Assembly (NCBI GenBank): GCA_026928325.1 | Contig: JAIXKS010000062.1 | Location: forward strand, 27,236 to 61,356 | DNA from: Chitinophagales bacterium | GTDB lineage: Bacteria > Bacteroidota > Bacteroidia > Chitinophagales > Saprospiraceae | DNA length: 34,121 nt | Direction of reading: 5' to 3' | Shown here: in pieces, positions 10,389 to 31,739 of the stretch | Numbering within the stretch: the first letter of the stretch is position 1 | Layout of the letters: each line of letters starts with the position of its first letter | Notes under the pieces: generated by a model | Database searches by the model: none | Seen by the model: the letters and a program-made list of their open reading frames with translations, nothing else | Told to the model about the DNA's origin: nothing | Translations under genes and position numbers: made by a program

Positions 10389-12554
10389 ATGAACAGAATT
10401 ATTACTATTACGGCATTTTTTATCGCTATTTTTGGCATGACGCTTTCCTCCTTTGCCGACCCAATCCTTATCTGTCAAGATATGACATTTAAAGCATTTC
10501 CTTTAATTCCTTTAGGACCATGTGAAAGCAATGTGCAATTGGAAATGAAGGCCTCTATTGAGTCGCCTTGTCAAGAAAACGACGAACTTAGCTGGCAGGT
10601 ATCTATGGACTTGTGGGCTGACGGCACTGTCGATAGATTAGGTTCGAGTCAATTGAATGTCGAATGGCTCAACCAATGGATTAAAATCGATAGATATGAA
10701 AATGGGCAAGAAACTCAGGCATGGCTACAACTCCAAGCTCAATATCCCGATTTGATCCTTCACGACGAACTATATGTCACTTATATAGTGCCAACATCTT
10801 CTGCTGATGTTACAGTCATGCTACCGGGATTTATACTATCCACCCATTCGAATAACCATATAGCCACATGGAAGATTACAGACAATTGTGGAAATAACGA
10901 CCAATGCAATCAATCTTTTGTGGTAAAAGACACGAAAGCACCGACACCAATTTGTATTTCTATAAGGAATTTTATTTTTACTTTGGAAGAAGCATGGGCA
11001 AAACATTTTGACAAGTTGTCCTTTGATGATTGTACACCAAACGAAAACCTATTATTTACTTTCGATGAAGTACTTCCTATGGAATCCATGCTTCTTGAAT
11101 CACACTATTACAAAAAAGAAGAAGGAAAAGTCGTTCTTGCATCTGAAGAAGAATATACAGCAGGTAAGGCCTATAAATGGGATCCCGATTTAAAAAGTGC
11201 TGCCGTATCAATATTCTTCTTTAAACCTGGTAGAAATGAGGTTATAGTAAGCGTTTGGGACGAAGCACTCAATACTGATTATTGTATATTCGAAATGCAT
11301 GTGGAAGGCCACCCTTATATGTATATGACGCACAAATTATCCGGACAAATAAAAACGATCGACGGAAGATTTTTGAATGACGCCAGTGTCATCAATGAAT
11401 CTATACTTCCTGAATTTCCATTACAGATCTATACGAAAGATGAAGGTCAATTTATTTTTGAGTACTTACCAAGTCAAACAAACTATACCATTCATGCTGA
11501 AAAGGAAGACTATCCTATCAATGGTGTTTCGACCTTAGATTTAGTCTTTATACAACGTCATATCTTGGGTATAGAGCCATTTGACAATCCATTTAAGATT
11601 ATGGCCTCTGATGGCAATGATGACGGAAGAGTTACCGCTTCGGATATCAACGAAATTCGAAAATTAATACTAGGCGTAAAACCGAGAATGATCAATAGTA
11701 GTTGGAGATTCCCTGTGATTCACCAAGATTTTTCGATGAAACACATTTTTCCATATATAGAAAAATATGAATTTCTTGATCTTAATGTTGATACTACTGG
11801 CGTTGATTTTATAGCTATTAAAATAGGAGATGTTAATGGTACTGCAGTGATTGATTTACAAGACAAAGATACGGAGATTAGGACATCCCGTGTCTGGAAT
11901 TGGGCTGTCGCCAACCAAACCTTCAAAGCTGGAGATATCATTTCAATTCCCGTATATTCTAATGAAGAAACAGACATTTACGGATGTCAGTTGACTTTTA
12001 ATGCCCAAAACTTAACGTTGATAGATATTGAGGGTGGCATACTTCAACCTGATGAAAGTGAAATAGGTCGTTTTGAAAATGGAAAAACATCTATGAGCTT
12101 GGCACTAGCCCATCCGATGCACGTGAATACTGAAACACCATTATTTACGCTACAATTTTTAGCGGAAGATGCCGGATCAATAAGTAACAATTTACAACTT
12201 ACTTCGGATATGACCACCGTCGAATACTATACAAAAGGATTTCAAGTAGGTAAAATAAACTTGCGTGTAAATCAAAACTCGACACAATCTCAAGTTGCAG
12301 TCTATCAGAACGAGCCCAATCCTTTCAATACGCAAACTCAAATTTCGTATTATTTGCCGGAAAATGGGCCAGTTTCTATTACCATCCATGACATGATGGG
12401 TCGCAAAATCCGAGAGTTCCAAATAGATGGTATCCAAGGTCACCATGCTTTTGAGATATCTCAAGACCAAATTGGCACATCCGGAACACTTTACTATACC
12501 TTTAAATTCAATGAATTCATTGAGACAAAAAAGATGATACTACTAGATAAATAG
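10389..12554 (+). CDS. Secreted T9SS protein with dockerin-like and cohesin-like domains
   Basis: A 721-residue exported protein. The signal peptide is residues 1-23 (ending SSFA before DPIL). The mature N-terminus (25-310) is a Cys-containing beta-rich region with ITDNCGN...CNQSFVVKDTKAP, resembling HYR/Ig-like modules. Residues 315-375 look like a carboxypeptidase-regulatory-like beta domain. A dockerin-like block spans 374-485: its first half (GVSTLDLVFIQRHILG) has lost the calcium loop, its second half keeps it (DGNDDGRVTASDI, then RKLILG), and it ends FIAIKIGDVNG. Residues 500-630 resemble a cohesin-type beta-sandwich (AGDIISIPVYSNE...TPLFTLQFLAEDAG). A T9SS type A sorting domain closes the protein (from about 635: YQNEPNPFNTQTQISYYLP). 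It is likely a surface or secreted structural or adhesive protein. Monocistronic. Confidence 0.85.
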   Translation: MNRIITITAFFIAIFGMTLSSFADPILICQDMTFKAFPLIPLGPCESNVQLEMKASIESPCQENDELSWQVSMDLWADGTVDRLGSSQLNVEWLNQWIKIDRYENGQETQAWLQLQAQYPDLILHDELYVTYIVPTSSADVTVMLPGFILSTHSNNHIATWKITDNCGNNDQCNQSFVVKDTKAPTPICISIRNFIFTLEEAWAKHFDKLSFDDCTPNENLLFTFDEVLPMESMLLESHYYKKEEGKVVLASEEEYTAGKAYKWDPDLKSAAVSIFFFKPGRNEVIVSVWDEALNTDYCIFEMHVEGHPYMYMTHKLSGQIKTIDGRFLNDASVINESILPEFPLQIYTKDEGQFIFEYLPSQTNYTIHAEKEDYPINGVSTLDLVFIQRHILGIEPFDNPFKIMASDGNDDGRVTASDINEIRKLILGVKPRMINSSWRFPVIHQDFSMKHIFPYIEKYEFLDLNVDTTGVDFIAIKIGDVNGTAVIDLQDKDTEIRTSRVWNWAVANQTFKAGDIISIPVYSNEETDIYGCQLTFNAQNLTLIDIEGGILQPDESEIGRFENGKTSMSLALAHPMHVNTETPLFTLQFLAEDAGSISNNLQLTSDMTTVEYYTKGFQVGKINLRVNQNSTQSQVAVYQNEPNPFNTQTQISYYLPENGPVSITIHDMMGRKIREFQIDGIQGHHAFEISQDQIGTSGTLYYTFKFNEFIETKKMILLDK

Positions 12555-12657: not shown

Positions 12658-12728
12658 CAGATTACACATTAGGATTCGTTATGCGCGACAAAAGAGTAAT
12701 ATATCCAGTAAAACGTTTGATTTACAGC
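12658..12728 (+). repeat. Repeat family B, copy 1 (internally deleted)
   Basis: CAGATTACACATTAGGATT and the following ~30 bases match 31616-31664 at nearly every position. After AATATATC the copy jumps to CAGTAAAACG ... GATTTACAGC, which aligns with 31717-31739. The roughly 50-base hairpin centre of the other copy is missing. It lies between the T9SS gene terminator and repeat A copy 1. Confidence 0.75.
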
Positions 12729-12840: not shown

Positions 12841-13005
12841 CTAGTGCTCTGTCAACAAAAATATCTTAATGAAATGTCGTTCCTTTTCCAAATCTTATCG
12901 TTAAAAATACTCGCCATAGTTACCACTATGTCTGCGTTTTTTGCCTTGATCTTTAAAAAAATAACTTCCATTATAGTTTAAGTCTTTTTATAGACAGAGC
13001 ACTAG
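12841..13005 (+). repeat. Repeat family A, copy 1 (full length, MITE-like)
   Basis: A 165-bp element bounded by perfect 13-bp terminal inverted repeats, CTAGTGCTCTGTC (12841-12853) and GACAGAGCACTAG (12993-13005). In its middle is the hairpin CATAGT-TACC-ACTATG (12915-12930), flanked by CGC and GCG and by an A-run and a T-run. It encodes no protein. The terminal CTAG on both sides may include the duplicated target. Similar copies are at 19673, 20954 and 25138, all in the same orientation and all intergenic. It has the features of a miniature inverted-repeat element, but no matching transposase is in the window. Confidence 0.88.
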
Positions 13006-13201
13006 TAAATACCATTGCGCACATGATGAAAATAAATAATTATTTCACCTAAAAGATATTTAATTATCGAATAATGTACTACATTTACATATTTGTAATA
13101 TTTTTGTAAAAAATTTTTAGACTTTTAATCTTAATAGCGTAAAAATCAAGATATATATAAGATTGAGGTATAATTTTTTATATAGAATCAGTATTATAAT
13201 T

Positions 13202-13234
13202 TTCGAACAAGATGATCTTGGTCATCAATTCGAA
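13202..13234. promoter_or_regulatory. Long dyad upstream of the cbb3 locus, possible Crp/Fnr-type operator
   Basis: TTCGAA-CAA-GATGA-TCTTGG-TCATC-AA-TTCGAA is an almost perfect inverted repeat over 33 bases. The core GATGA-N6-TCATC has the half-site length and 6-base spacing of Crp/Fnr-family operators. It lies 38 bases before ccoS. A near -7 element TAATTTTC (13197-13204) overlaps its left end. Control of cbb3 oxidase genes by Fnr-type regulators is well known in other bacteria; applying it here is inference. It could instead be an mRNA hairpin. Confidence 0.5.
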
Positions 13235-13272
13235 GTATAAACAATTTCTAAATTGCACGCAATTTTGTAAAA

Positions 13273-13440
13273 ATGAAAGTTATATTTTATCTTATTATCA
13301 TCAGTTTGGTACTTGCGGCTGGTTTTTTGGCTTCCTTTTTTTGGGCGGTCAAAGACGGGCAATACGACGACGAATATACGCCGGGTATGCGTATCTTACT
13401 AGAAGATGATATGATCGAAAAGAAGAATAAAAACAAATAA
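13273..13440 (+). CDS. ccoS: cbb3 oxidase maturation protein CcoS
   Basis: A 55-residue single-span membrane protein needed for cofactor insertion into cbb3 oxidase. The hydrophobic segment is residues 3-24 (ending FLASFFWAVKDGQYDD). The FFWAVKDGQYDD pattern followed by an acidic tail is the CcoS signature, and the tail ends in Lys/Asn-rich sequence. The ATG at 13273 follows the operator-like dyad and the stop is 26 bp before ccoNO. In many bacteria ccoS sits next to the copper ATPase gene ccoI, which is absent here. Confidence 0.88.
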   Translation: MKVIFYLIIISLVLAAGFLASFFWAVKDGQYDDEYTPGMRILLEDDMIEKKNKNK

Positions 13441-13466
13441 AAACAAAACATTTAAAAATCGGGTTT

Positions 13467-15584
13467 ATGGCAAATTTAGAGACATTTAATTATGACAATA
13501 AGGTTGTACGTAACTTTGCTTATGCGACAATCATATTTGGTGTTATCGGTATGCTAGTAGGGATAACAGCTGCATTACAGTTGGTATCTCCTATGTTCAA
13601 TTTTGGGCTCGCTGAAACAACTTTTGGACGTATCAGACCATTGCATACCAATGCAGTCATCTTTGCATTCGTAGGTAACGGTATATTTACGGGTGTGTAT
13701 TATTCTTTACAAAGGTTGCTCAAAACGAGAATGTACAGTGATTTTCTTTCAAATTTCCATTTTTGGGGATGGCAATTAATTATTCTTTCTGCCGCTATTA
13801 CCCTACCTATGGGATTAACCTCTAGTCACGAGTACGCAGAATTAATATGGCCTATTGATATTGCCATAGCCATTGTATGGATCGTGTTTGGTATCAATAT
13901 GTTTGGTACTTTGTTAAAAAGAAGAGAGCGACATATTTATGTAGCCATTTGGTTTTACATCGCTACATGGGTTACGGTAACTGTGCTTCATATTTTTAAC
14001 AACATTCAGATTCCGGTTAGTATGTCCTATGCTGTCAATGCATTTGCTGGAGTTCAAGACGCTTTAGTACAGTGGTGGTATGGTCACAATGCGGTTGCAT
14101 TCTTCCTGACTACACCCTACCTAGGATTGATGTACTACTTCCTTCCTAAGGCAGCGAACAGACCGGTATATTCTTATAAATTATCTATTATCCACTTCTG
14201 GGCATTGATATTTTTATATATATGGGCAGGACCTCACCACTTATTATATACATCATTACCGGATTGGGCACAATCTTTAGGTACAGTATTCTCCATTATG
14301 TTGATCGCTCCATCTTGGGGAGGTATGTTAAATGGACTTTTAACATTAAGAGGTGCTTGGGACAAAGTAAGAACGGATCCTATTTTGAAGTTTTTCGTTG
14401 TTGCCGTGACTGCTTATGGTATGGCCACACTAGAAGGACCGCTATTATCTGTCAAATCCCTTAACGCAATAACACACTATACAGACTGGACTGTAGGTCA
14501 CGTACATATCGGAGCCTTAGGCTGGAATGGAATGTTGACCTTTGGTATGTTGTATTGGTTGCTACCAAGAATTTATGGTACAAAACTTTATTCAATCAAG
14601 TTGGCGAATACGCACTTCTGGATAGGTACCTTGGGTATATTATTCTATGCTATTCCACTCTATTGGGCAGGTTGGACTCAATCATTGATGTGGAAACAAT
14701 TTACACCGGATGGATTTTTGGAATACGGTAACTTCCTAGAAACGGTTACTCAGATATTACCAATGTACATGATTCGTGCTATTGGTGGTTTGATCTACTT
14801 TGTCGGAGTAGTTGTCATGATTTACAATTTATATATGACTGTAAAAAGTGGTAAATTGATTGCGGATCAAGAAGCTTCAGCACCAGCTTTAGAAGCTTAT
14901 GTTCGTGAGAAAAACGAGCATTGGCACCGTTGGATAGAAAGAAAACCAATTCAAATGTTATTTTGGAGTACCATCGTTATATTAATAGGAGGTATTATCG
15001 AAATCATCCCTATGATGCTTATTGACGAAAACGTACCAAAGATAGCGTCTGTTAAACCATATACACCACTAGAACTCGAAGGACGAGATATCTATATTCG
15101 TGAAGGTTGTGTCAACTGTCACTCTCAAATGGTTCGTCCATTCAGATCTGAAACAGAACGATATGGTGAATACTCAAAATCGGGAGAATTCATTTATGAC
15201 CGACCATTCTTATGGGGTAGTAAGCGAACAGGTCCGGACTTACATCGTGTAGGTGGTAAATATCCGGATAGTTGGCACTACAACCACATGATGGATCCAA
15301 CGTCGATGGCACCGGGTTCTATCATGCCTCCGTATCCATGGTTATTGAAAAACGATCTTAATACCAGCTATACACCGGCAAAGATTCGTGTACTTCAATC
15401 ACTAGGTACACCATATCCAGAAGGGTACTCAGAAAGAGCGGTAGAAGATTTGCAAAATCAAGCAAAAAAGATAACTGCCAGCTTGGCTAAAGATAAGATT
15501 AATCAAGAAAATCTTGAAAACAAAGAAATCATTGCGGTGATTGCTTATCTACAGCGATTAGGTACGGATATTAAAGTGAAGTAG
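13467..15584 (+). CDS. ccoN: Fused cbb3 cytochrome c oxidase subunits I and II (CcoN-CcoO)
   Basis: A 705-residue fusion of the catalytic heme-copper subunit and its membrane-bound cytochrome c. Residues 1-460 are CcoN with about 12 helices: His60 (RPLHTNAV) is a low-spin heme ligand, His207 (WWYGHNAV) and His257-His258 (GPHHLLYT) are CuB ligands, and GHVH (344-347) carries heme ligands. After a linker (460-495), a helix (about 497-517) anchors the CcoO part, with heme site CVNCH (548-552) and a likely axial Met in GSIMPPYPW. The fused form is usual in Bacteroidota. The complex reduces O2 to water at low oxygen and pumps protons. Confidence 0.95.
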   Translation: MANLETFNYDNKVVRNFAYATIIFGVIGMLVGITAALQLVSPMFNFGLAETTFGRIRPLHTNAVIFAFVGNGIFTGVYYSLQRLLKTRMYSDFLSNFHFWGWQLIILSAAITLPMGLTSSHEYAELIWPIDIAIAIVWIVFGINMFGTLLKRRERHIYVAIWFYIATWVTVTVLHIFNNIQIPVSMSYAVNAFAGVQDALVQWWYGHNAVAFFLTTPYLGLMYYFLPKAANRPVYSYKLSIIHFWALIFLYIWAGPHHLLYTSLPDWAQSLGTVFSIMLIAPSWGGMLNGLLTLRGAWDKVRTDPILKFFVVAVTAYGMATLEGPLLSVKSLNAITHYTDWTVGHVHIGALGWNGMLTFGMLYWLLPRIYGTKLYSIKLANTHFWIGTLGILFYAIPLYWAGWTQSLMWKQFTPDGFLEYGNFLETVTQILPMYMIRAIGGLIYFVGVVVMIYNLYMTVKSGKLIADQEASAPALEAYVREKNEHWHRWIERKPIQMLFWSTIVILIGGIIEIIPMMLIDENVPKIASVKPYTPLELEGRDIYIREGCVNCHSQMVRPFRSETERYGEYSKSGEFIYDRPFLWGSKRTGPDLHRVGGKYPDSWHYNHMMDPTSMAPGSIMPPYPWLLKNDLNTSYTPAKIRVLQSLGTPYPEGYSERAVEDLQNQAKKITASLAKDKINQENLENKEIIAVIAYLQRLGTDIKVK

Positions 15585-15610
15585 CCAATTTATTAAAAAA
15601 AATATAGAAT

Positions 15611-15775
15611 ATGGCAAAATATATTTTAGAAGGAGCCGGAAGTATCAATTGGATGGCTATATTTGCACTTGTTACGTTTTTTTTTGTATTTACGATGAGC
15701 GTTGTACTTGTTTTTCGAAAAAACAAAAAAGACTTGGATAGATTAAAAAATCTACCCTTGGAGGATGATGAGTAG
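15611..15775 (+). CDS. ccoQ: cbb3 oxidase small subunit CcoQ-like
   Basis: A 54-residue peptide in the position of CcoQ, between ccoNO and ccoP. One membrane helix (about residues 14-35, MAIFALVTFFFVFTMSVVLV) is followed by a basic stretch RKNKKD and an acidic end LEDDE. CcoQ stabilises the association of CcoP with the core complex in other bacteria. The assignment rests on position, size and topology, since these subunits are poorly conserved. It starts 26 bp after ccoNO. Confidence 0.8.
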   Translation: MAKYILEGAGSINWMAIFALVTFFFVFTMSVVLVFRKNKKDLDRLKNLPLEDDE

Positions 15776-15817
15776 TATAAAATGTGTATTTTTGTCAATT
15801 AATTAATTATTCAAACA

Positions 15818-16747
15818 ATGATGAAGAAATTTTCTTTAACATTCATGTATATAGCTGCCCTTGGAGTGGTCAATGTGTATGGCCAAGGTGGTAACGCTGA
15901 TAATATGGGAAAAGTAGTTTTAAACTATATTTATAATAATTTTCTTTTATTTTTGGCAATCGCCGTATTGTTGGGAGTTTTAGGTGTAGCCTTAAACCTC
16001 ATTTGGGCATTTATAGATACTGAAAAGGTAAAACTTGCGAACCAAGGTGGTTCAATTAGTGTTGGTCAATCAACATCAAGTAGCGAAAAATCGTTTTTAC
16101 GCAAATGGTATGAGCGTGCATGGAATATTGCACCTGCAGCAAAAGAAGCCGACATTGACTTAGGTCATGAATACGACGGGATTAGAGAATTGGACAATTC
16201 CCTTCCGCCATGGTGGTTGTGGATGTTTTATGGTACAATCATCTTTGCAGGCGCATATTTTTGGTATTACAACGTTTCTCACAAGGGACCAAACCAATTG
16301 CAAGAATATGAAATCGCCATGGAAGTTGCCGAATTACAAAAAGCTCAGCAATTATCCGCTCAAGGAAATATGATTGACGAAACGAACGTAACCGTTATCA
16401 CAGATGAAGCCGCCATTGAAGAAGGTAAGGAAATCTATCAGACGAACTGTGCAGTTTGTCATGGTAAAGAAGGTGAAGGACTTGTTGGACCTAACTTTAC
16501 TGACAAATATTGGTTGCACGGAGGTAGCGTCAATGATATCTTTAGCGTTATCAAATACGGTGTTCCAGAAAAAGGAATGATTTCTTGGAAAGATCAGTTG
16601 AGACCAGCAGCGATTCAAAAAGTGTCTAGCTATATCTTGACATTCCAAGGCACCAATCCGCCAAATCAAAAAGAAGCTGAAGGAGAATTGTACGAACCTA
16701 AAGTTGAAGAGGCAGCTCCACAAGCAGAACCTACTCCGGAAGGATAG
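15818..16747 (+). CDS. ccoP: cbb3 oxidase subunit III (CcoP), mono-heme form
   Basis: A 309-residue membrane cytochrome c. An N-terminal signal-like segment (1-22) is followed by helix 1 (about 42-66) and a second helix after the conserved YDGIRELDNSLPPWWLWMF (119-137), the hallmark of CcoP. The periplasmic cytochrome domain has a single heme site CAVCH (211-215) with probable axial Met254 (EKGMISW). Proteobacterial CcoP usually has two hemes; one is common in Bacteroidota. The tail (280-309) is rich in Glu, Pro and Ala. The start is MM, so 15818 and 15821 are equally possible. Followed by a terminator. Confidence 0.92.
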   Translation: MMKKFSLTFMYIAALGVVNVYGQGGNADNMGKVVLNYIYNNFLLFLAIAVLLGVLGVALNLIWAFIDTEKVKLANQGGSISVGQSTSSSEKSFLRKWYERAWNIAPAAKEADIDLGHEYDGIRELDNSLPPWWLWMFYGTIIFAGAYFWYYNVSHKGPNQLQEYEIAMEVAELQKAQQLSAQGNMIDETNVTVITDEAAIEEGKEIYQTNCAVCHGKEGEGLVGPNFTDKYWLHGGSVNDIFSVIKYGVPEKGMISWKDQLRPAAIQKVSSYILTFQGTNPPNQKEAEGELYEPKVEEAAPQAEPTPEG

Positions 16748-16813
16748 TAAATATATTGAATTTTTTTATCCGTTTATCTTTTTTTATAGATAACAGATAG
16801 CCCACAATTATAA

Positions 16814-16852
16814 AAAATAAGAAGGTTGAAAATAGATCGGCCTTCTTATTTT
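16814..16852 (+). terminator. Terminator after ccoP
   Basis: Stem AAAATAAGAAGG ... CCTTCTTATTTT of 12 perfect base pairs with a 15-base loop and a T-rich end, 66 bases after ccoP. It separates ccoSNOQP from ccoG, so ccoG probably has its own promoter or is read by partial read-through. Confidence 0.8.
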
Positions 16853-16918
16853 CGTAAATATAAGATAGCAAACTCCAAATTAATTTATTACTTTTTGCTT
16901 CATTCAAAATTAAATTAG

Positions 16919-18424
16919 ATGGACGTAGATCAATTTTACCAAATGGACGACCAGTTCAGAGATGAAATTGCCACTGTAGATAAAAGTGGTAAACGCATCT
17001 GGGTATATCCAAAGAAACCTTCAGGTAAATTCACCAATTATAGAACCTGGCTTTCCTATTTTTATTTTTTAGTATTCTTTGGCCTTCCTTTTATAAAAGT
17101 AAATGGAGAGCCATTTGTTTTATTAAACATTATTGATAGGGAATTTATAATCTTCGGTATTCACTTTGGCCCACAAGATTTTTACTTGTTTGCCATTGCA
17201 ATGCTGATATTACTAGTATTCATCATTCTTTTTACAGTCGTTTTCGGTCGATTATTCTGTGGCTGGATATGCCCGCAGACCGTCTTTATGGAACTTCTTT
17301 ATAGAAGAATAGAATACGCGATAGAAGGTGATCATAATGCACAGAGAAAACTAGATAAAGCTCCTTGGGATACCGATAAAATCCTTAAAAAAGGAGGCAA
17401 ACATTTCTTATTTCTTTTGTTAGCCGTTATCATCTCCAATACCTTCCTGGCATATATTATCGGTTTAGATGAAGTCGTAAAAATCATTAAAGACCCAATA
17501 TCTGAACATGCCAGCGGATTTATCGCTATGGTGATATTTTCCTTTGTATTCTATATCGTATTTGCCAAACTCAGAGAGCAAGTTTGTACGACCATTTGTC
17601 CATACGGAAGGCTCCAAGGAGTTATGTTGGACAATAAATCTCTGGTAGTGGCTTACGACTTTGTGCGTGGTGAGCCAAGAGGCAAAATCAAAAAAACAAA
17701 GGCAGCACCAGCTACTAAGCCACAACCAGCGGCAGCTATGGCAACAAGTACCGCTACAGCTACCTATGATCCATTGGGAGACTTCCTAGGTGCAACCCAA
17801 GAAAAACTAGGAGATTGTATCGACTGCCGATTGTGCGTACAAGTTTGTCCTACCGGAATTGATATCAGAAATGGTACCCAGTTGGAATGTGTCAACTGTA
17901 CAGCATGTATGGATGCGTGCGACGATGTCATGGAAAAAATCGATCGACCTAAAGGGCTTATCCGCCTAGACAGTATCGAAGGTATCACGAAAGGAGAACG
18001 CAAAATTTTCAATACCAGAACCATTGCCTACTCTGTCGTGCTATTTGTTTTGATAGCCGTAGAAGTCCTCCTATTTACGCTTAGGTCAGATGTCGAAGTT
18101 CTTTTCCTCCGAACAGGTGGTTTACTCGCTCAAGAGCAAGCAGACGGTACAGTAAGTAACTTGTATAATTTCCAATTAATAAATAAAACGTCCAACACGC
18201 TACCGTTAGAATTTAGGATGATGGAACCTGCATTAGGAAGTTTCGAAATTATAGGAGGTAAAGAGCCTATCGTCGAAAAAAATAGTAATGCGAAAGGAAC
18301 CGTCTTCATTAAAATACCGGCAGAAAGCCTGCATAGTGGTAAAAACAATATTGTTATTGGCGTCTATTCAGATGATAAACTTATCACAAAAGTCAAGACC
18401 ACTTTCTTTGGACCTATAAAATAA
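16919..18424 (+). CDS. ccoG: cbb3 maturation copper oxidoreductase CcoG (FixG/RdxA)
   Basis: A membrane ferredoxin-type protein that reduces Cu(II) to Cu(I) for cbb3 assembly. N-terminal helices (about 45-60 and 87-110) are followed by the conserved GRLFCGWICPQTVF (110-123) and VCTTICPYGRLQG (222-234) loops with paired Cys. Two 4Fe-4S clusters are coordinated by CIDCRLCVQVCP (300-311) and CVNCTACMDACD (324-335). A C-terminal Ig-like FixG domain (about 385-501) follows the last helix. Odd feature: an Ala/Thr/Pro-rich stretch of about 35 residues (260-295) separates the membrane part from the ferredoxin domain. Length 501 is slightly above the usual ~470. Confidence 0.93.
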   Translation: MDVDQFYQMDDQFRDEIATVDKSGKRIWVYPKKPSGKFTNYRTWLSYFYFLVFFGLPFIKVNGEPFVLLNIIDREFIIFGIHFGPQDFYLFAIAMLILLVFIILFTVVFGRLFCGWICPQTVFMELLYRRIEYAIEGDHNAQRKLDKAPWDTDKILKKGGKHFLFLLLAVIISNTFLAYIIGLDEVVKIIKDPISEHASGFIAMVIFSFVFYIVFAKLREQVCTTICPYGRLQGVMLDNKSLVVAYDFVRGEPRGKIKKTKAAPATKPQPAAAMATSTATATYDPLGDFLGATQEKLGDCIDCRLCVQVCPTGIDIRNGTQLECVNCTACMDACDDVMEKIDRPKGLIRLDSIEGITKGERKIFNTRTIAYSVVLFVLIAVEVLLFTLRSDVEVLFLRTGGLLAQEQADGTVSNLYNFQLINKTSNTLPLEFRMMEPALGSFEIIGGKEPIVEKNSNAKGTVFIKIPAESLHSGKNNIVIGVYSDDKLITKVKTTFFGPIK

Positions 18425-18431
18425 AGACCAT

Positions 18432-18471
18432 ACAACAACAGGTGCGCAAACACTAAGCCACCTGTTGTTGT
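18432..18471 (+). terminator. Strong hairpin between ccoG and ccoH
   Basis: Perfect 13-bp stem ACAACAACAGGTG ... CACCTGTTGTTGT with a 14-base loop. No clean T-run follows, so it may be an attenuator or an RNA-processing/stability element inside the operon rather than a full terminator. Confidence 0.6.
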
Positions 18472-18493
18472 TATACTTATAAATCATCCATAT

Positions 18494-18937
18494 ATGAAAT
18501 TCAATTGGGGTACAGGATTAGCTATTTTTATTATTGCCTTTATAGGAACGCTTGTTTTTATTTTATATAAATCCACTCAATATTCTGAAAGCTTAGTTGT
18601 AAAGAATTATTATGAAGAAGATTTGGCTTATCAAGAAGTCATGGTAAAAAAGCAAAATACTGCTGACTTGCCTGCACAAGTAAAGCTAAACTATCTCAAA
18701 GAAAAACAACAAATAGAAATCGTTTTCCCTTCGGATCATACCAATGATATCCAAGGTAGTGTGCTTATTTTTAGTCCTATTTCAGACAAACTCGACGTTA
18801 AACACGAATTTAATATAGGGCAAGACTCGATATTTAACATTCCAGTTTCGGAATTGAACAATGGAAAATACAGGATAAAACTCGATTGGAATCGAGCCGG
18901 AAAAAAATATTATCAAGAAGAGGTTGTCGTCATTTAA
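18494..18937 (+). CDS. ccoH: FixH/CcoH-like cbb3 assembly protein
   Basis: A 147-residue protein with one N-terminal membrane helix (about residues 8-25, LAIFIIAFIGTLVFILYK) and a periplasmic beta domain. The segment VVKNYYEEDLAYQEVM (35-50) is the typical FixH feature. The end, GKYRIKLDWNRAGKKYYQEEVVV, closes the beta-sandwich. FixH/CcoH is needed for stable assembly of the cbb3 complex. It lies between ccoG and the TauE/SafE gene, the usual order in Bacteroidota. Confidence 0.86.
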   Translation: MKFNWGTGLAIFIIAFIGTLVFILYKSTQYSESLVVKNYYEEDLAYQEVMVKKQNTADLPAQVKLNYLKEKQQIEIVFPSDHTNDIQGSVLIFSPISDKLDVKHEFNIGQDSIFNIPVSELNNGKYRIKLDWNRAGKKYYQEEVVVI

Positions 18938-18946
18938 TCAATCGAA

Positions 18947-19645
18947 TTGTACTGGATAGCATTTCTCTTAGGTTTCTTTGGTAGTTTGCATTGTATAGGT
19001 ATGTGTGGACCGCTAGCCATGGCTGTTCATACCACAAAACAACAAACAGGATGGGTTGCTTTAGGAGGTTCCTTGATGTATAATTCTGGGAGAACATTGG
19101 GTTATATTAGCCTTGGATTGCTATTTGGAATCATCGGTAGTATTGCAGCTTTTAGTGGGATTCAGCGGTTTTTATCTATTTTGCTTGGAGTCATTATGAT
19201 TCTGTTTTTTCTCCTATCTACAAATCCCGATCAATTGATTGCCAAGTCTGCCATCCTTAGGAAGGCTTATGCTAAAGTAACGACAACACTAGGTAGCTTC
19301 TTAAAGAAAAGCAAGCAAGTACCGTCCTTTTATCTAGGGCTAATCAATGGGTTTTTACCTTGTGGACTCGTTTATTTGGCCATAGCTGGAGCTATTTCTT
19401 TAGGCAATATATACGGAAGCATGGGGTTTATGTTATTCTTCGGGCTTGGTACATTTCCAGCTATGGTTGGGCTTATTATTGGCCATCAAGCTGTAAGCCA
19501 AAAATGGAGAATTTCACTAGCTAAACTTTATCCTTTCATCAGCTTAGTCATGGGAATTTACCTGATTTATAGAGGTTGGATGTCGAAACTACCCCTAGAA
19601 CTCGATTTCTTTGAAGCTTTAAAAAACCCGATTATGTGCCATTGA
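18947..19645 (+). CDS. TauE/SafE-family membrane protein of the cbb3 locus
   Basis: A 232-residue polytopic membrane protein with about six helices, annotated in databases as sulfite exporter TauE/SafE or a DsbD-like transmembrane family. The N-terminal loop FGSLHCIGMCGPLAMAV holds a His-Cys-Met-Cys cluster, echoed by NGFLPCGLVY in the second half and a terminal MCH; such residues suit copper or thiol handling. Its position directly after ccoH suggests a part in cbb3 metal supply rather than sulfite export, but that is inference. The start is TTG, 9 bp after ccoH; the next ATG (residue 20) would cut into the first helix. Confidence 0.8.
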   Translation: MYWIAFLLGFFGSLHCIGMCGPLAMAVHTTKQQTGWVALGGSLMYNSGRTLGYISLGLLFGIIGSIAAFSGIQRFLSILLGVIMILFFLLSTNPDQLIAKSAILRKAYAKVTTTLGSFLKKSKQVPSFYLGLINGFLPCGLVYLAIAGAISLGNIYGSMGFMLFFGLGTFPAMVGLIIGHQAVSQKWRISLAKLYPFISLVMGIYLIYRGWMSKLPLELDFFEALKNPIMCH

Positions 19646-19672
19646 TATCATGCATGAATGGATGGAAACATA

Positions 19673-19833
19673 AAGTGCTCTATCAACAATAAAATCTTAA
19701 TGAAATTTCGTTCTTTTTTCAAATCTCATCGTTAAAAATACGCGTCATAGTTACCACTATGCCTGCGTTTTTTGCCATGATCTTTAAATAAATCTTCCAT
19801 TATTATTTAAATCTTTTTATGAACACAGCAATA
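19673..19833 (+). repeat. Repeat family A, copy 2 (degenerate ends)
   Basis: Same layout as copy 1 at about 85-90 percent identity by eye, including the central CATAGT-TACC-ACTATG. The ends have decayed: AAGTGCTCTATC on the left and GAACACAGCAATAG on the right. It lies directly upstream of rlmN, between the TauE/SafE gene and the rlmN promoter, and the last part of 19834-19896 holds only that promoter. Confidence 0.82.
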
Positions 19834-19884
19834 GGCATTTGATCGATACAATAAATTATTTCTTTCAACTTATTCTTTTTTAAG

Positions 19885-19892
19885 TAACTTTG
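19885..19892 (+). promoter_or_regulatory. -7 element TAACTTTG of rlmN
   Basis: Perfect TAnnTTTG only four bases before the ATG. Transcription should begin at or within a few bases of the start codon, so the mRNA would be leaderless or nearly so. No TTTG is visible at the -33 position. Confidence 0.55.
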
Positions 19893-19896
19893 CAGT

Positions 19897-20946
19897 ATGA
19901 ATGCAAAAAACAAACAGGATATACGCAAGCTTTCTTTTGAGCAAATTAAAGCGTTTATAATAGCGAATGGGCATCCTGCATTTAGAGCCAAGCAAATATA
20001 TGAATGGCTTTGGCAAAAAGGCGAAACATCCTTTGATAACATGAGTAACCTTTCTAAGGAATTGAGAGCAGAGCTAAATGAACATTTTGAAATTCACTCG
20101 ATAACCTTGGATAAGGCTCAACACAGCCTCGACGGGACTCTCAAAAGTAGGTTTACCCTCTACGATGGGCATAAGATAGAATCGGTACTCATACCCGTTC
20201 CCGTAGAACAACGATTCACAGCGTGTGTATCTATACAGGTAGGTTGTAGCTTATCTTGTAAATTTTGCGCAACAGGCCAAATGCCGAGAGTTAGAAATCT
20301 AGATGCCGCTGAGGTTTATGACCAATATGTCGAAGTTAACAAACAATGTCTCGAAACATACGGCCATCCTCTGACCAATGTCGTATATATGGGTATGGGT
20401 GAACCTTTACTCAATTATAGCAATACCATGGAAAGTATAGAGCGACTCACAAGTCCGGATGGGCTCAATATATCTCCTAAAAGAATAACGGTCTCAACTG
20501 CAGGAATAGCCAAAATGATCCGCCGCATGGCCGATGAAGATACTAAAGTCAACCTCGCACTTTCCTTACATGCTGCCGATGATCAAAAGAGAAACATGAT
20601 TATGCCGATCAATGAGCAGAATAATCTAGAAGTTTTGATGGACGCATTAAAATACTTTTATCAAAAGACTGGAAATAAGATCAGCTACGAGTATATCGCT
20701 TTCAAAAACTTCAACGATACCCTTGAAGATGCTAAAAACCTAGTCAAACTTTGCAAAGCTTTTCCGGTCAAAGTCAATATTATCGAGTATAATCCCATCG
20801 CAGGATTAGATTTTGCAAAATCGGATGAAAATGCCATCAATCAATTTGCTTTACATCTTCGTAAAAATGACGTCATGTGCACCATCCGTAGAAGTCGAGG
20901 CAAGGATATAGACGCAGCTTGTGGGCAATTGGCCAATAAAGAATAA
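19897..20946 (+). CDS. rlmN: Dual-specificity RNA methyltransferase RlmN
   Basis: Radical SAM enzyme that makes 2-methyladenosine at A2503 of 23S rRNA and A37 of some tRNAs. The 4Fe-4S binding motif is CSLSCKFC (Cys117, 121, 124). The two cysteines of the ping-pong mechanism are visible: Cys110 (FTACVSIQVG) and Cys342 (DIDAACGQL). Other family blocks: YMGMGEPLLNY, TVSTAGI, LALSLHA and RRSRGKDIDAACGQL at the end. At 349 residues it is full length. It stands alone, bracketed by repeat A copies 2 and 3. Confidence 0.95.
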   Translation: MNAKNKQDIRKLSFEQIKAFIIANGHPAFRAKQIYEWLWQKGETSFDNMSNLSKELRAELNEHFEIHSITLDKAQHSLDGTLKSRFTLYDGHKIESVLIPVPVEQRFTACVSIQVGCSLSCKFCATGQMPRVRNLDAAEVYDQYVEVNKQCLETYGHPLTNVVYMGMGEPLLNYSNTMESIERLTSPDGLNISPKRITVSTAGIAKMIRRMADEDTKVNLALSLHAADDQKRNMIMPINEQNNLEVLMDALKYFYQKTGNKISYEYIAFKNFNDTLEDAKNLVKLCKAFPVKVNIIEYNPIAGLDFAKSDENAINQFALHLRKNDVMCTIRRSRGKDIDAACGQLANKE

Positions 20947-20953
20947 TACGCTA

Positions 20954-21119
20954 CAAGTGCTCCGTCCACAAAAATATCTTCATGAAATGTCGTTCTTTTT
21001 TCAAATCTCATCGTTAAAAATACTCGCCATAGTTACCACTATGCCTGCGTTTTTTGCCTTGATCTTTAAAAAAAATAACTTCCATTATTATTTAAGTCTT
21101 TTTATAGACAGAGCACTAG
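20954..21119 (+). repeat. Repeat family A, copy 3
   Basis: A 166-bp copy starting 8 bases after the rlmN stop codon. The left end CAAGTGCTCCGTC has two differences from copy 1; the right end GACAGAGCACTAG is perfect. The central hairpin is intact, followed by GCGTTTTTT, so it may also terminate rlmN transcription. Same orientation as copy 2, giving rlmN flanking direct repeats. Confidence 0.86.
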
Positions 21120-21202
21120 TTCAATAAGGAATTAGAATAACGCATAGAGTTAAATGTCGAATTTATCATATATATAGTAAACTAAATATCAGTATCATAA
21201 AC

Positions 21203-21613
21203 CTATTTGTGCTTATTTGGTTTCTTTAGGCTTCTATCTATATAAAAGTGTGCAATTAAGAGAAAGACAATGGTAATCGTCGTTCTAAAAATCATGGCTT
21301 TTATCGTCTTAACTTCATAAAGTCCTCCCGAGTTAATATGGAAAAGCAAGCCAATAAATGCGACAGTTAATACCAATACAGCGAGGGACAATATCTTTTT
21401 GGCATAGATTGCAGGTTTGAAAAAATAATAGGACGCAGCAAGATACATCAAGCCACAACACCAATTTGTCCAAACAATAAATGGCACATAATTGCCTTGC
21501 TTGGCTCGAATACCCAATAGATCAAAATTGACTGCCGTACTCATAAACAGCGTGAGCAATCCAAAACTCATTAAGAATATCCCTGCTATACTTAAAATTG
21601 TCTTGTTATTCAT
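21203..21613 (-). CDS. Four-helix membrane protein, unknown function
   Basis: A 136-residue protein with four predicted membrane helices: about 6-27 (ILSIAGIFLMSFGLLTLFMS), 44-63 (containing WTNWCCGLMYLAASYY), 72-92 and 106-126, followed by a basic tail RSLKKPNKHK. No family recognised. It lies 94 bp downstream of the small lipoprotein gene on the same strand and could be transcribed with it. Confidence 0.65.
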   Translation of the reverse strand: MNNKTILSIAGIFLMSFGLLTLFMSTAVNFDLLGIRAKQGNYVPFIVWTNWCCGLMYLAASYYFFKPAIYAKKILSLAVLVLTVAFIGLLFHINSGGLYEVKTIKAMIFRTTITIVFLLIAHFYIDRSLKKPNKHK

Positions 21614-21707
21614 CGCTTATCCATTTATAAATGTGTAATCAAGAGCCTACTTTTAATGCTAATTTTATTATCAAAAAAACAAGCATTGTCTCCAATTCAA
21701 GCTAAGT

Positions 21708-22175
21708 TTACTGAAAATAGTTGTGATACATCTGATAAGATTCGGCCAGTTTTTTTACGATAAAAATCGCTGTTTCCGAACTTTCAGCATCTTCTAAATC
21801 TTCCGTAAGCAGTATATGTGGATTCAACCATTTGTGCAACTCCTCATGGCTTTTACCCTGCATGGTACAACTCCGAATAAGATTTCCATTCTCCGTAACC
21901 AAGCCTTTAGCCAATTTTTCATAATCGGTATCTTCATTCGCTATATAGTTCAAAATCAGTTGTTCTCCATTGAGAATGAATGGTTTCATTTCCTCATTGA
22001 CAGCCCATTTTTGGCCATTTTCTAATTCAATGTCACCTGAAATAGCGCTATGATCCAGCTCCAAATCCGATAATTCCACATCTTGTTGGCTGTTGGCCTC
22101 TTGGTTGGGCTTATTCCCACAACTCAAAAGTGCAAAAGAAAGGATCGCAATAATAAGAAGGTAAGGTGTTCTCAT
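21708..22175 (-). CDS. Small lipoprotein, unknown function
   Basis: A 155-residue lipoprotein. Signal peptide MRTPYLLIIAILSFALLSC with lipobox LLSC and lipidated Cys19, then GNKPNQEANSQQD. The mature domain is helical (NEEMKPFILNGEQLILNYI; SSETAIFIVKKLAESYQMYHNYF) and has one further Cys in RSCTMQGKSHEELHKWL. The pattern of charged helices and a TMQGKSHEELH segment suggests a small periplasmic helical bundle; I do not know a matching family. Promoter box at 22207-22214. Confidence 0.7.
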   Translation of the reverse strand: MRTPYLLIIAILSFALLSCGNKPNQEANSQQDVELSDLELDHSAISGDIELENGQKWAVNEEMKPFILNGEQLILNYIANEDTDYEKLAKGLVTENGNLIRSCTMQGKSHEELHKWLNPHILLTEDLEDAESSETAIFIVKKLAESYQMYHNYFQ

Positions 22176-22206
22176 GAGATTTTTTATTGATGAATGCTAA
22201 AACGTA

Positions 22207-22214
22207 CAAAAGTA
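22207..22214 (-). promoter_or_regulatory. -7 element TACTTTTG of the small lipoprotein gene
   Basis: Perfect TAnnTTTG on the minus strand, 31 bases before the lipoprotein start. No well-placed -33 TTTG. Confidence 0.5.
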
Positions 22215-22300
22215 ATTGCTAATACTCTTTAATCCTTTCAACAGTCTGAAAGTCAATATGTTTATGCAGCGGCACATTCATTACCCATATAGTTAAAAAA

Positions 22301-24814
22301 TTAATGAATATCCTTTTTGTTTCTTTTATATAGCTTGAAAACTTCAAACCACAGAACAGAGATACTCGCAATCAATAAAGCAAATCCAATATGTCCTATT
22401 TCTAATGGATTTACTTGAAAAAAGTCAGCAACGGTAGGTATGTAAAGGATCACGAAAACAGCTAAAAAGGCTAGCACATTAATACTAATCAATAATGGAT
22501 TTTTATTCTTCAAGCTATCCAGAATACTATAATAAAAAGATCGATTTACAAGGCTTAAAATCACATTTGCAAAGATCAAAGTAGTAAATACCATGGCTCG
22601 GGTTTCTTCCTCTGTTCCGCCGATATTTACCGTCCATTGGTAAGCAAAAAGAACACCTAAAGTTATCATCAAACCCTGAACAATACTAATCGTGAGTTCC
22701 TTTTGATTTAAGAAAGTATCCGCCATAATCCTCGGCGGCTTTTGCATTAAATTTTTCTCCATAGGCTCACTCTCATAGGCAATCGAACAAGTCGGGCCCA
22801 TGACCAATTCAAGAAAAATAACATGAACCGGCGTAAAAATCAAAGGATAGGACCAGCCTAAAAATAGCGGCAATGCTACGGTCAATATAATCGGAATATG
22901 GATTGAAATAATATATTGGATGGCCTTTTTTATATTCGTATAAATGCGTCTGCCCGCTGCAATCCCGATAATCAAGTTATCCAAATTATCATTGGTTATC
23001 ACTAAATCGGCAGCTGCTTTGGCTATTTCGGTACCCTTGTGACCCATGGCCACACCAATATGTGCCGCCTTCAATGCCGGAGCATCATTGACACCATCTC
23101 CAAGCATGGCTACGACTTCGCCGTTTTTCTTCAATGCACGAACTACTGCCAATTTTCTTTCTGGATACATCCTAGCAAAAATAGTGGTTTTCTTAACGAG
23201 GGTTTGCAATTCTCCTTCCTCCATATCGGCTATTTCATAGCCATTGACTATAGAGTTATCGATTAATATACCGGCTTGCTCGGCAATAGCTTTAGTGGTG
23301 CCTCCATGATCACCCGTAATAATCTTGAGATCAATACCGGCATCGGCGATTTGTCGAAACACTTCGTTGATTCCATCCTTAGGCGGATCATAAAACATCA
23401 ATAAACCTAAAAACTCAAATTGAAAATCTTGTTGCCTTTTAGGAAAATCAGGACCATTCCATATAGCTTTTCCTACACCTAATATGCGATATCCTTTTAT
23501 TCCAAATTCCTCAATGACCTTGCGAATCGCAGATTTTTCTGTGCTGGTCAGGATACTCACATCCATGATAGCTTCAGCTGCACCTTTAGCAGCAATAATT
23601 CGATACTTTTGCTCGTCTTCATAAATATGAGTCATCATGGGCGGTTGTCCATCCAGAGGATACTCATGGCACATCACATACGTTTTGCTCAAATCAGTGG
23701 TTTGCGTCGATGCATATACTTCATGGATGGTCTTTTCCAAAGGATCAAAAGGTACCGGCTCGCTACTCCACATCGCATATTCGATTAGTTCAGCATAGGT
23801 ATGTTCTTTCAATTGACTTGCAGCAGCTATATGACCGGATTTTTTGTCATAGATATAGTGAAGTTGCATGATATTTTTAGTAATCGTACCCGTCTTATCG
23901 GCACAAATGACGGTTGTGCTCCCAAGCGTTTCAACAATATTGCTCCTTTTGATGATGAGGCCATCTTGCATGAGTTTCCACGCTCCCAAGGCCATAAAAG
24001 TCGTAAATGCCACCGGGATTTCTTCGGGTAATACCGACATAGCCATGGTCAGCCCATTCAAAAGGCTTTCAATAAGTCCGCCTGACATATAATAGCTAAA
24101 TACCCAAACCATCGCAAAAACGGATATACCTAATATGGCCATCTTTTTGACAAATGAGGAAATCTGTATTTGTAATGGAGATTTTTCTTCCTCCATATGA
24201 AGAACCGCACTACCGATTTGGCCTAATCGAGTCTCCTTACCTAAAAATTCAACTTCAAAAACAGCTAAACCGGACACGACAATAGTCCCACTATAAATCC
24301 GATTATCTTCCGAATCTCGATTTTTAAAAATTGAGAAACGCTCACCCGTCAAGGAGGATTCATTCACTGAAAAATCGTTACTATGGAGGATTCGGCCATC
24401 CGCATTAATCATCTTTCCTTCTTCAACGATGCATAAGTCGCCTACTGCTATCTCAAACGAAGGAATCTCTTGTACTTGTCCCTCTCGGATGACTTTACTC
24501 AATGGCTCATTGAGTTGTTCTAAAGCTTGAAGTGCCCTTTTACTGCGATTATCTTGATAAAAAGAAATACCTGAAACCGCTAGTATTGCTGCAAACATGA
24601 AAATAGCTTCACCGTAATCTCCTATCATCAGATAAAGTATCGTCACTGCTATCAACAATAGCAACATTGGCTCTTTGAGGATATCTAATAGCATAGTAAG
24701 CCAAGAATCTGCCTTAAACGATTCTGCCTTGTTGTACCCGAATCGCTCCCGAGACGACCTTAGTTCATCGGCTGTAAGACCTCTTAAATGTTCAGGAATG
24801 TTTGCATGCATCAT
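22301..24814 (-). CDS. P-type cation-transporting ATPase (P2-like, substrate unclear)
   Basis: An 837-residue P-type ATPase. Phosphorylation site ADKTGTIT with Asp306, actuator TGE at 156-158, TGDHGG and GDGVNDAPALK hinge motifs, and about ten membrane helices place it nearest the Ca2+/P2 group; it has no N-terminal heavy-metal domain and no CPC motif, so it is not the copper pump CcoI. Deviations from SERCA-type pumps: helix 4 reads PEEIPVA (263-269) in place of PEGLP, the actuator has TGER instead of TGES, and helix 6 reads ELVMGPTCSIAYESEP. Ca2+, Mn2+ or Mg2+ are possible ions. The start ATG-ATG is preceded directly by GGAGG, one of few SD-like sequences in the window. Confidence 0.87.
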   Translation of the reverse strand: MMHANIPEHLRGLTADELRSSRERFGYNKAESFKADSWLTMLLDILKEPMLLLLIAVTILYLMIGDYGEAIFMFAAILAVSGISFYQDNRSKRALQALEQLNEPLSKVIREGQVQEIPSFEIAVGDLCIVEEGKMINADGRILHSNDFSVNESSLTGERFSIFKNRDSEDNRIYSGTIVVSGLAVFEVEFLGKETRLGQIGSAVLHMEEEKSPLQIQISSFVKKMAILGISVFAMVWVFSYYMSGGLIESLLNGLTMAMSVLPEEIPVAFTTFMALGAWKLMQDGLIIKRSNIVETLGSTTVICADKTGTITKNIMQLHYIYDKKSGHIAAASQLKEHTYAELIEYAMWSSEPVPFDPLEKTIHEVYASTQTTDLSKTYVMCHEYPLDGQPPMMTHIYEDEQKYRIIAAKGAAEAIMDVSILTSTEKSAIRKVIEEFGIKGYRILGVGKAIWNGPDFPKRQQDFQFEFLGLLMFYDPPKDGINEVFRQIADAGIDLKIITGDHGGTTKAIAEQAGILIDNSIVNGYEIADMEEGELQTLVKKTTIFARMYPERKLAVVRALKKNGEVVAMLGDGVNDAPALKAAHIGVAMGHKGTEIAKAAADLVITNDNLDNLIIGIAAGRRIYTNIKKAIQYIISIHIPIILTVALPLFLGWSYPLIFTPVHVIFLELVMGPTCSIAYESEPMEKNLMQKPPRIMADTFLNQKELTISIVQGLMITLGVLFAYQWTVNIGGTEEETRAMVFTTLIFANVILSLVNRSFYYSILDSLKNKNPLLISINVLAFLAVFVILYIPTVADFFQVNPLEIGHIGFALLIASISVLWFEVFKLYKRNKKDIH

Positions 24815-25137
24815 CCTCCGAAAAATTATCTTTTATCGAAAAACATCGTTTTGGATATAAAAATAAGTTATAATTTTTTATCAAGGATATCCTAAGGTCT
24901 AGAAATGACCTAATTGCAAGAATTTATAATCATTCCAATTTGATAGGCTTATAAAATTGGGTGTTATTTTCATCCAATGATTGCTATCCATGAAGATGAG
25001 ATACAAGGGTTTTTCAACATCCATGACCATAAATGTGCATGCAAATCAAGGATTTCTATGTATATATATATGTAGATATAACCAAGGCCTAAATACAGCA
25101 AGCACGAACTATTCGACGATAGATTTTGACAAAAACA
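24815..25137. other. AT-rich spacer without gene
   Basis: About 320 bases upstream of the ATPase gene and before repeat A copy 4. It holds a short TA-rich run near 25060-25075 and no ORF, terminator or TAnnTTTG element that I would defend. Confidence 0.4.
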
Positions 25138-25200
25138 CTAGTGCTCTGTCAACAAAAAAATCTTAAAGAAATGTCGTTCTTTTTATAGACAGCGCACTAG
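25138..25200 (+). repeat. Repeat family A, copy 4 (internally deleted, 63 bp)
   Basis: Begins with the perfect terminus CTAGTGCTCTGTC and ends GACAGCGCACTAG (one difference). It runs as copy 1 through ATGTCGTTCTTTTT and then jumps to ATAGACAG, missing about 100 central bases. In the full copies both breakpoints carry TCTTTTT, so deletion between short direct repeats explains it. Confidence 0.85.
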
Positions 25201-31615: not shown

Positions 31616-31739
31616 CAGATTACGCATTAGGATTCGTTATGAGCGTCAAAAGAGCAATAAATCAGAGATTTATTATCGAAAAGCATAACCACCGTTATGG
31701 TTACAGATAATAAATACCGTGAAACGGCTGATTTGCAGC
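31616..31739 (+). repeat. Repeat family B, copy 2 (full)
   Basis: Begins CAGATTACGCATTAGGATT as in copy 1. It contains a perfect outer stem ATTTATTATC (31668-31677) with GATAATAAAT (31706-31715) enclosing the small hairpin CATAAC-CACC-GTTATG (31684-31699), and ends with a segment also present in copy 1 (CCGTGAAACGG...TTTGCAGC). It starts 12 bases after the DUF819 stop. The remaining spacer to 31892 shows nothing else. Confidence 0.78.

What the first reader, a model, noticed from the sequence alone, without database searches (positions are those of the whole stretch)
12841..25200. Four-copy MITE-like intergenic repeat (family A) with 13-bp terminal inverted repeats
Copies at 12841-13005, 19673-19833, 20954-21119 and 25138-25200 share ends, centre and orientation and never enter a gene. 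Copy 1 has perfect termini CTAGTGCTCTGTC/GACAGAGCACTAG. Four copies in 12 kb imply a high genomic load. No transposase with such ends is in the window, so the mobilising element is unknown.
Basis: seen in the sequence. Interest (0 to 1): 0.7.

Follow-up and report, generated by a model that had tools for sequence, protein, structure and literature searches.

The report
Mobile DNA hairpins with conserved tip
The repeats are copies of a short mobile DNA element, present well over a hundred times in this Saprospiraceae-type genome; related elements in distant Bacteroidota carry the same folded hairpin tip on different mobile ends, and the fold seems to be preserved for one strand only.

Summary
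The repeat is real and is a MITE. The window holds three 163-166-bp copies and one 63-bp internally deleted copy. The genome (3.72-Mb draft, nearest to Saprospiraceae) has 392 sites within one mismatch of CTAGTGCTCTGTC (4 control sites), about 167 loci by extrapolation; TA flanks both ends at 59 of 86 loci. No transposase with these ends was found in this genome. A 1,217-bp IS630-family IS whose ends share 13 of 16 letters with them is in six copies in a distant Bacteroidota genome that also holds palindromic elements with those ends, so IS630-type mobilisation in trans is the best explanation.

The unexpected part is inside. The whole element is one long imperfect hairpin. Its ~63-nt tip recurs across Bacteroidota on about a dozen terminal sequences (by eye), nearly always with self-complementary arms. 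In a 36-sequence alignment all 22 base pairs show two-sided changes. Arm mismatches are strand-biased (G·U 186, A·C 46; baseline 62% G·U), so one single strand, RNA or ssDNA, is selected. Within this genome distinct mutations are unbiased but multi-copy ones lean to G·U (p 0.05), hinting that the fold serves spread. No Rfam family or paper found matched. The hairpin's role is inferred.

The parts
12841..13005 (+). Full-length element, copy 1 (165 bp incl. CTAG at both ends), between two genes of the same direction
   Evidence: perfect 13-bp TIR
12844..12853 (+). Left TIR GTGCTCTGTC of copy 1, preceded by TA
12993..13002 (-). Right TIR GACAGAGCAC of copy 1, followed by TA
12891..12953 (-). Conserved structured core of copy 1 (R1 match 76.5 bits, E 3.7e-20)
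19672..19834 (+). Full-length element, copy 2, with degraded ends (AAAGTGCTCTATC ... GAACACAGCAATAG)
19722..19784 (-). Conserved core of copy 2 (65.6 bits)
20954..21119 (+). Full-length element, copy 3, between convergent genes
21004..21066 (-). Conserved core of copy 3 (79.3 bits)
25138..25200 (+). Core-less 63-bp form with both TIRs, joined at TCTTTTT; the same form is at two other loci with different flanks (L132, L344)

Best explanation
The repeats are a MITE family: non-autonomous DNA elements cut and pasted in trans by an IS630-family (Tc1/mariner-like) transposase that recognises GTGCTCTGTC ends and inserts at TA, often within CTAG. They carry a conserved hairpin. The whole element folds back on itself on the core strand, with the two TIRs paired at the base and a conserved ~63-nt tip (internal loop CAAGGC/AACG, variable paired stem, apical ATAGCC-NN-AGCTAY hairpin). 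The fold is maintained because elements that keep it spread better; once inserted, a copy decays freely and can lose the tip by internal deletion. Tandem arrays arise by local duplication. Shown here: ends, TA flanks, copy number, structure, covariation, strand asymmetry, similar ends on an IS630 in other genomes. Inferred: that an IS630 enzyme moved these copies, and that the fold serves spread.
For: TA on both sides at 59 of 86 paired-end loci, 40 of these 59 being C-TA...TA-G (at least four of the 86 are chance pairs, not removed). In G349 six pairs of ends 1,217 bp apart delimit one IS: one copy has TAGTGCTGCGTCAAG at both ends, five have it at one end and TAGTGCCGTGTCAAG at the other; that genome's palindromic elements have the same end, exactly or with 1-2 mismatches. 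ORFs were examined in two of the six copies: second ORF IS630 NF033545 109.7 bits (cut-off 100) and DDE_3; first ORF 59.9 bits, below that cut-off. IS630s of the host's own order, L287 and L288, end in CTAGTGTCATGTCAA or CTAGTGTCGTGTCAA. Core: 22 of 22 pairs with two-sided changes, covariation 0.493 against 0.168 shuffled and 0.08-0.13 slid. Arms pair best with their own partner in 23 of 27 elements (-40.4 against -14.1 kcal/mol) and 18 of 20 others (-59.1 against -28.4). Strand test: 186 G·U against 46 A·C arm mismatches, 44 of 50 elements with more G·U, p 3.8e-9 against the 62% cross-element baseline; with one element per genome 163 to 40 in 43, p 2.6e-8. In 98 copies of this genome, distinct transitions at paired sites are 30 G·U and 27 A·C, but those in 3 or more copies are 13 and 5 (Fisher p 0.052). 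The same core-less 63-bp form at three loci with different flanks fits ends being sufficient, unless the same deletion recurred.
Against: No IS630 transposase was found in this genome (PF13358: 0 matches; tblastn with the G349 transposase: 0). Of 13 IS630-like loci of the order scanned for CTAGTG-type ends, 10 showed none, among them four copies from G589. No empty site could be compared: intergenic DNA of the nearest named relative (L042) is too diverged. Other TIR types carrying the same core show 3-bp TTA/TAA or 4-bp CTAG flanks, so IS630 need not be the mobiliser of all of them. The propagation argument rests on p 0.05 and on copies that share ancestry, some in tandem.
Confidence: 0.7

Rival explanations
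1. The hairpin is a functional RNA of the host or a cis-regulatory element (terminator, RNase site) that the MITE scaffold merely disperses.
For: Strand-specific G·U bias and covariation; mismatches on the core strand are purine-purine 227, pyrimidine-pyrimidine 54 (from the table; no cross-element control was made for this); copy 1 folds far better than shuffles (z -5.0 and -6.6).
Against: No clear relation to gene strand in this genome: convergent 14, divergent 11, same-direction 13 of 38 elements with both neighbours called; of 9 full copies in same-direction sites 6 have the copy-1 orientation of the genes and 3 the opposite. Distinct transitions on copies are balanced, 30 to 27. No Rfam match.
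Confidence: 0.12
2. The element moves as folded single-stranded DNA (HUH/Y1 transposase or attC-like recombination), REP/REPIN-like, and the TIRs are only the base of the hairpin.
For: Selection on one folded strand; orientation follows replication skew at 69 of 99 loci, contig-level p 0.009; Y1 transposases are present in 15 of 18 core-bearing genomes searched.
Against: Only 3 of 30 Y1 loci examined had a core in reach, at roughly 0.1, 0.7 and 1.1 kb, and the two Y1 proteins compared are only 38% identical. TA-flanked symmetric ends match a DDE transposon in G349. If the G-rich strand leads (a recalled general rule), it is the less stable strand that lies on the lagging template.
Confidence: 0.1
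3. Arms stay complementary only because replication template-switching repairs quasi-palindromes; no selection on the fold.
For: It would make arms co-vary without function and would explain how both ends change together (recalled mechanism; complementary arms).
Against: As recalled it is strand-symmetric and would not give 186 G·U to 46 A·C, nor keep the internal loop CAAGGC/AACG across genomes.
Confidence: 0.05

Closest known systems
RUP of Streptococcus pneumoniae (hypothesised trans-mobilisation by IS630-Spn1; passages of PMC3049150 seen)
   Same: Short, AT-rich, TIR, TSD, folded with its TIRs paired, linked to an IS630-family IS
   Different: RUP is reported from pneumococcus and S. mitis, almost absent from other streptococci; here one hairpin tip recurs across a phylum on many ends
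ERIC of Enterobacteriaceae and Vibrionaceae (passages of review PMC10969869 seen; palindrome and TA target recalled)
   Same: Intergenic palindromic element, wide taxonomic range, high and variable copy number
   Different: Not compared by sequence here; in the present family ends diverge between genomes while the tip is conserved, and strand-specific pairing was measured
Correia elements of Neisseria (passages of PMC10969869 and PMC3049150 seen)
   Same: MITE with TIRs, over 100 copies, transcripts cleaved by RNase III at the TIRs
   Different: Described from Neisseria; not compared by sequence here
REP/REPIN with RAYT (search listings with the start of the abstract of PMC3116915 and PMC2817692 only)
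   Same: Dispersed extragenic hairpins, small mobile DNA
   Different: No consistent Y1 partner here; long arms with DDE-type TIRs and TA flanks

Membership tests
MITE | Short, non-coding, terminal inverted repeats | tested here: met
   165 bp, perfect 13-bp ends in copy 1; no ORF of 100 aa or more over the copies
MITE | Target-site duplication | tested here: inconclusive
   TA on both sides at 59 of 86 loci; no empty site available
MITE | High dispersed copy number | tested here: met
   392 end sites against 4 control; about 167 loci extrapolated
MITE of IS630 type | Ends shared with an IS630 element | tested here: met
   Met for the relative in G349, where IS and palindromic elements share TAGTGCTGCGTCAAG. 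For the window's own family the ends are similar, not identical: 13 of 16 letters to that IS (by eye)
MITE of IS630 type | IS630 partner in the same genome | tested here: not met
   0 matches for PF13358 and for the G349 transposase; draft assembly of 74 contigs
REP/REPIN-RAYT | Linked Y1 (RAYT) transposase | tested here: not met
   Cores near 3 of 30 Y1 loci, not consistently placed
Known RNA family (Rfam 15) | Covariance-model match | tested here: not met
   0 at gathering threshold for the window; no match at the cores in four loci at E up to 5
Tandem or gene-linked array | Copies confined to arrays or one gene type | tested here: not met
   81 of 102 loci single; no clear gene-arrangement link

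The most novel reading that the evidence does not exclude
A hyperparasitic hairpin: one ancient, strand-specific RNA or ssDNA structure that spreads through Bacteroidota by riding on whichever insertion-sequence ends are locally active. It has changed its terminal repeats (2-bp TA, 3-bp TTA/TAA and CTAG target types) many times while both arms stayed complementary and the tip was kept, and the fold itself is selected for transposition.
Probability: 0.4. Interest if true: 0.88.

Novelty: new variant of a known kind. Interest (0 to 1): 0.7.

Why it matters
MITE interiors are usually taken as leftover DNA. Here an interior structure recurs across a phylum, co-varies at every base pair of a 36-sequence alignment and is maintained for one strand, while the ends that transposases read keep changing. 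That makes testable whether a folded transcript or ssDNA helps a non-autonomous element to move, and whether such a structure can change transposase partners. It also gives a covariance model for finding such repeats in other Bacteroidota genomes.

Tried and rejected
Empty-site comparison with the nearest named relative (L042): intergenic DNA too diverged to define the duplication. Autonomous IS in this genome: of 13 DDE_Tnp_1 matches, 11 belong to three IS types that were delimited by comparing copies and end otherwise (GGGCATCTCTAAAAA, AGAGGCTGTCCGAAAAGG, TAGTCGTCCC); the other two (C8 in L152, C55 in L185) were only scanned for the ends, which do not bracket them. One copy each of two of these IS types lies inside an element copy or dimer, which I read as insertion into it. 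Other transposase families were not searched apart from PF13358 and PF01797. A 1-kb pair of ends on C2 (L122) belonged to separate copies. IS630s of the first scan of relatives (L135-L150) were not bracketed by GTGCTCTGTC-like ends. Y1 transposases as partners: rejected. An IS with GAGGCTGTTGAA ends in G752: the two widely spaced end pairs fetched contain ORFs I take for host genes by eye, no transposase; only the first 100 places of that genome were listed. Plasmids, phages and IMG/VR: no matches (69; and 65, 106, 107 as exact patterns). Orientation tied to gene bias: none. Orientation tied to replication: not significant for single stretches (GC3 p 0.12, AT3 p 0.08) nor as a rank correlation over 22 contigs (p 0.25 and 0.19), significant as pooled counts over 23 of 26 contigs (C10, C15 and C51 left out for too few genes, one locus for, one against, two undecided). 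Papers: searches listed nothing I recognised as this element; I judged from titles and abstract starts, and from passages of PMC10969869, PMC3049150, PMC12542641 and PMC4853749. Two searches used literal sequence strings (43, 104; 0 papers each).
Full report
1. Observation. The window contains three full copies (12841-13005, 19672-19834, 20954-21119) and one 63-bp form (25138-25200). Copy 1 has perfect 13-bp ends. Copy 4 has the ends but not the centre. The copies lie between ORFs.

2. Copy number and host. The window is part of contig 62 of a 3,724,515-base draft in 74 contigs. Its RlmN is nearest to a Saprospiraceae MAG (86%, L042), so the host is a Saprospiraceae-type bacterium; its own name was not shown. 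CTAGTGCTCTGTC occurs 392 times at up to one mismatch, against 4 for the reversed pattern. Twenty 19-kb stretches of six contigs, spaced without regard to hits, hold 21 copies in 17 loci, or about 167 loci per genome.

3. Ends and target. In the sampled stretches 86 end-paired loci were found; 72 have TA on the left, 67 on the right, 59 on both, and 40 of the 59 read C-TA...TA-G. At least four of the 86 are chance pairs that I did not remove. Among the 59, outer bases other than C and G occur with TA kept, so I read the duplication as TA in a preferred CTAG. No empty site was available.

4. Mobiliser. No IS630 (PF13358) match exists in this genome or in eight of the nine genus relatives searched; G009 has three. 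Eleven of 13 DDE_Tnp_1 matches belong to three IS types with other ends; two were not delimited. In G349, a single-contig genome of another class of the phylum, the pattern TAGTGCTGCGTCAAG showed six pairs 1,217 bp apart and palindromic elements with that end. At up to two mismatches the pattern found 30 sites against 26 for the reversed control in that genome, so the loose matches alone mean little; the 12 exact matches and the repeated 1,217- and ~165-bp spacings carry the case. ORFs of two of the six copies were examined: IS630 NF033545 109.7 bits (cut-off 100) for the second, 59.9 for the first, with DDE_3 and HTH_32. IS630s in the host's own order, L287 and L288, have CTAGTGTCATGTCAA or CTAGTGTCGTGTCAA ends; 10 of 13 such loci scanned showed no end of this type. 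IS ends and element arms share a second AATGTCG-like motif near position 28, by eye. The window family thus most likely moves by an IS630 enzyme that is absent here, lies in a gap, or acted earlier.

5. The element is a hairpin. Both strands of copy 1 fold far better than shuffles (z -5.0 and -6.6). The minus strand, which carries the core, is the more stable one in all four copies, and the core strand in the consensus of 98 copies (-61.0 against -42.4 kcal/mol).

6. The tip is conserved, the arms are not. BLAST with copy 1 finds 14 of 60 genomes, own included: full length in four others of the genus, only the centre or pieces elsewhere. A 63-nt core finds 17 of 149 genomes of the order, own included, of which one (G067, L203) looks like chance. 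A covariance model finds 10 of 395 genomes of the phylum, own included, and a second model 15 of 244 genomes of the class of G349; both searches used strict filters. Among 80 named loci around rlmN, five matches lie in four: two Saprospiraceae MAGs, an Aureispira MAG and, partial and weak, a Chitinophagales MAG. The sequences around the core differ between genomes but are self-complementary: -40.4 against -14.1 kcal/mol for foreign arms in 27 elements, own partner best in 23; -59.1 against -28.4 in 20 others, best in 18. L220 (-17.1), L252 (-20.6), L260 (-9.7), L110 (-21.4) and the cut-off L069 pair poorly.

7. Different ends, different targets. By eye there are about a dozen terminal types. 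In the GTAAC type all six elements seen (L196, L201, L211, L213, L214, L215) have identical 3-bp flanks, TAA or TTA; in the TACM type eight of ten do (not L197, L212). In G752, with 411 sites for AGRAGGCTGTTGAA against 4 control, 11 of 19 elements fetched have CTAG on both sides, and some carry the core and some do not by a loose pattern. So the core rides on ends with at least two, perhaps three, target types. I did not cluster ends or build a tree, and found an IS with matching ends only for the CTAG-TG type.

8. Covariation and strand. On 38 cores 89.9% of cells pair and 15 of 22 pairs show two-sided changes. On 36 more diverse cores 88.2% pair and all 22 pairs show them; covariation 0.493 against 0.168 for shuffles and 0.08-0.13 for slid partners. 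The structure was drawn by me from these sequences, which favours it in the slid control; RNAalifold on its own gives 17 pairs, nearly all the same, all 17 with two-sided changes. The strand test needs no folding: left arms were aligned to reverse-complemented right arms with a symmetric score. I gave it 50 of the fetched elements. On the core strand 186 mismatches are G·U and 46 A·C; 44 elements have more G·U, 3 fewer, 3 equal. Foreign arms give 62% G·U, and against that baseline p is 3.8e-9; with one element per genome 163 to 40 in 43 elements, p 2.6e-8. Perfect dsDNA palindromes or template-switch repair should be symmetric, so one folded strand, RNA or ssDNA, appears to be selected.

9. 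Level of selection. Among 98 distinct full copies of this genome, paired sites change less than unpaired ones (4.1% against 7.7%) and G·U-making changes outnumber A·C-making ones in cells (137 to 69). Counted once each, the distinct changes are balanced (30 to 27); those carried by three or more copies lean to G·U (13 to 5; Fisher p 0.052). I read this as free decay of single copies and selection during spread; it is suggestive only.

10. Genome layout. Of 45 elements in 187 kb (stretches mostly chosen for hits), 2 overlap a crude ORF call; sites are convergent 14, divergent 11, same-direction 13. All 21 tandem arrays seen are head to tail on one strand, many sharing the CTAG; neighbours are more alike than other pairs (94.9% against 91.7%, best match in 9 of 14), so arrays look like local duplications. 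Neighbouring loci agree in strand in 62 of 74 cases (permutation mean 36.7, p 5e-5); with the loci of the later stretches added, 64 of 89 (mean 44.2, p 5e-5). Strand follows the third-position GC skew of the contig in 69 of 99 loci (Fisher 2e-4; contig permutation p 0.009), though the per-contig rank correlation is not significant.

11. Novelty. No Rfam match; no paper with the sequences and none recognised in the other listings (33, 35, 71, 97, 98, 103) of an open-access library that lacks most subscription papers. As a MITE it is a known kind; the conserved, strand-specific tip on changing ends is what sets it apart.

Noticed in passing
12658-12705 and 31616-31663: A second dispersed repeat, 48 nt, 90% identical; a reverse-complement relative also lies beside an element copy in L003, by eye.
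   Followed up: no
13467-15584: One ORF of 705 aa matches COX1 (12-443) and FixO (487-702): looks like a fused cbb3 oxidase CcoN-CcoO.
   Followed up: no
10389-12554: ORF of 721 aa with a cohesin match just above cut-off and a dockerin match below cut-off.
   Followed up: no
L186 1239-3025 (G000 C49): A 563-aa-transposase IS with AGAGGCTGTCCGAAAAGG end sits at the junction of a tandem dimer of the element, where the joint palindrome is missing.
   Followed up: partly
L039 (G002) around 1501: A core variant whose apical hairpin is replaced by roughly 75 nt of other sequence with hairpin potential, by eye, while the flanking internal loop remains.
   Followed up: no
G752 (L373-L390): A 3.1-Mb genome with 411 sites for one end sequence and many length classes of palindromic elements, some with and some without the core.
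   Followed up: partly
G000 sampled contigs: Element strand is polarised over tens to hundreds of kilobases and tends to follow third-position GC skew.
   Followed up: partly
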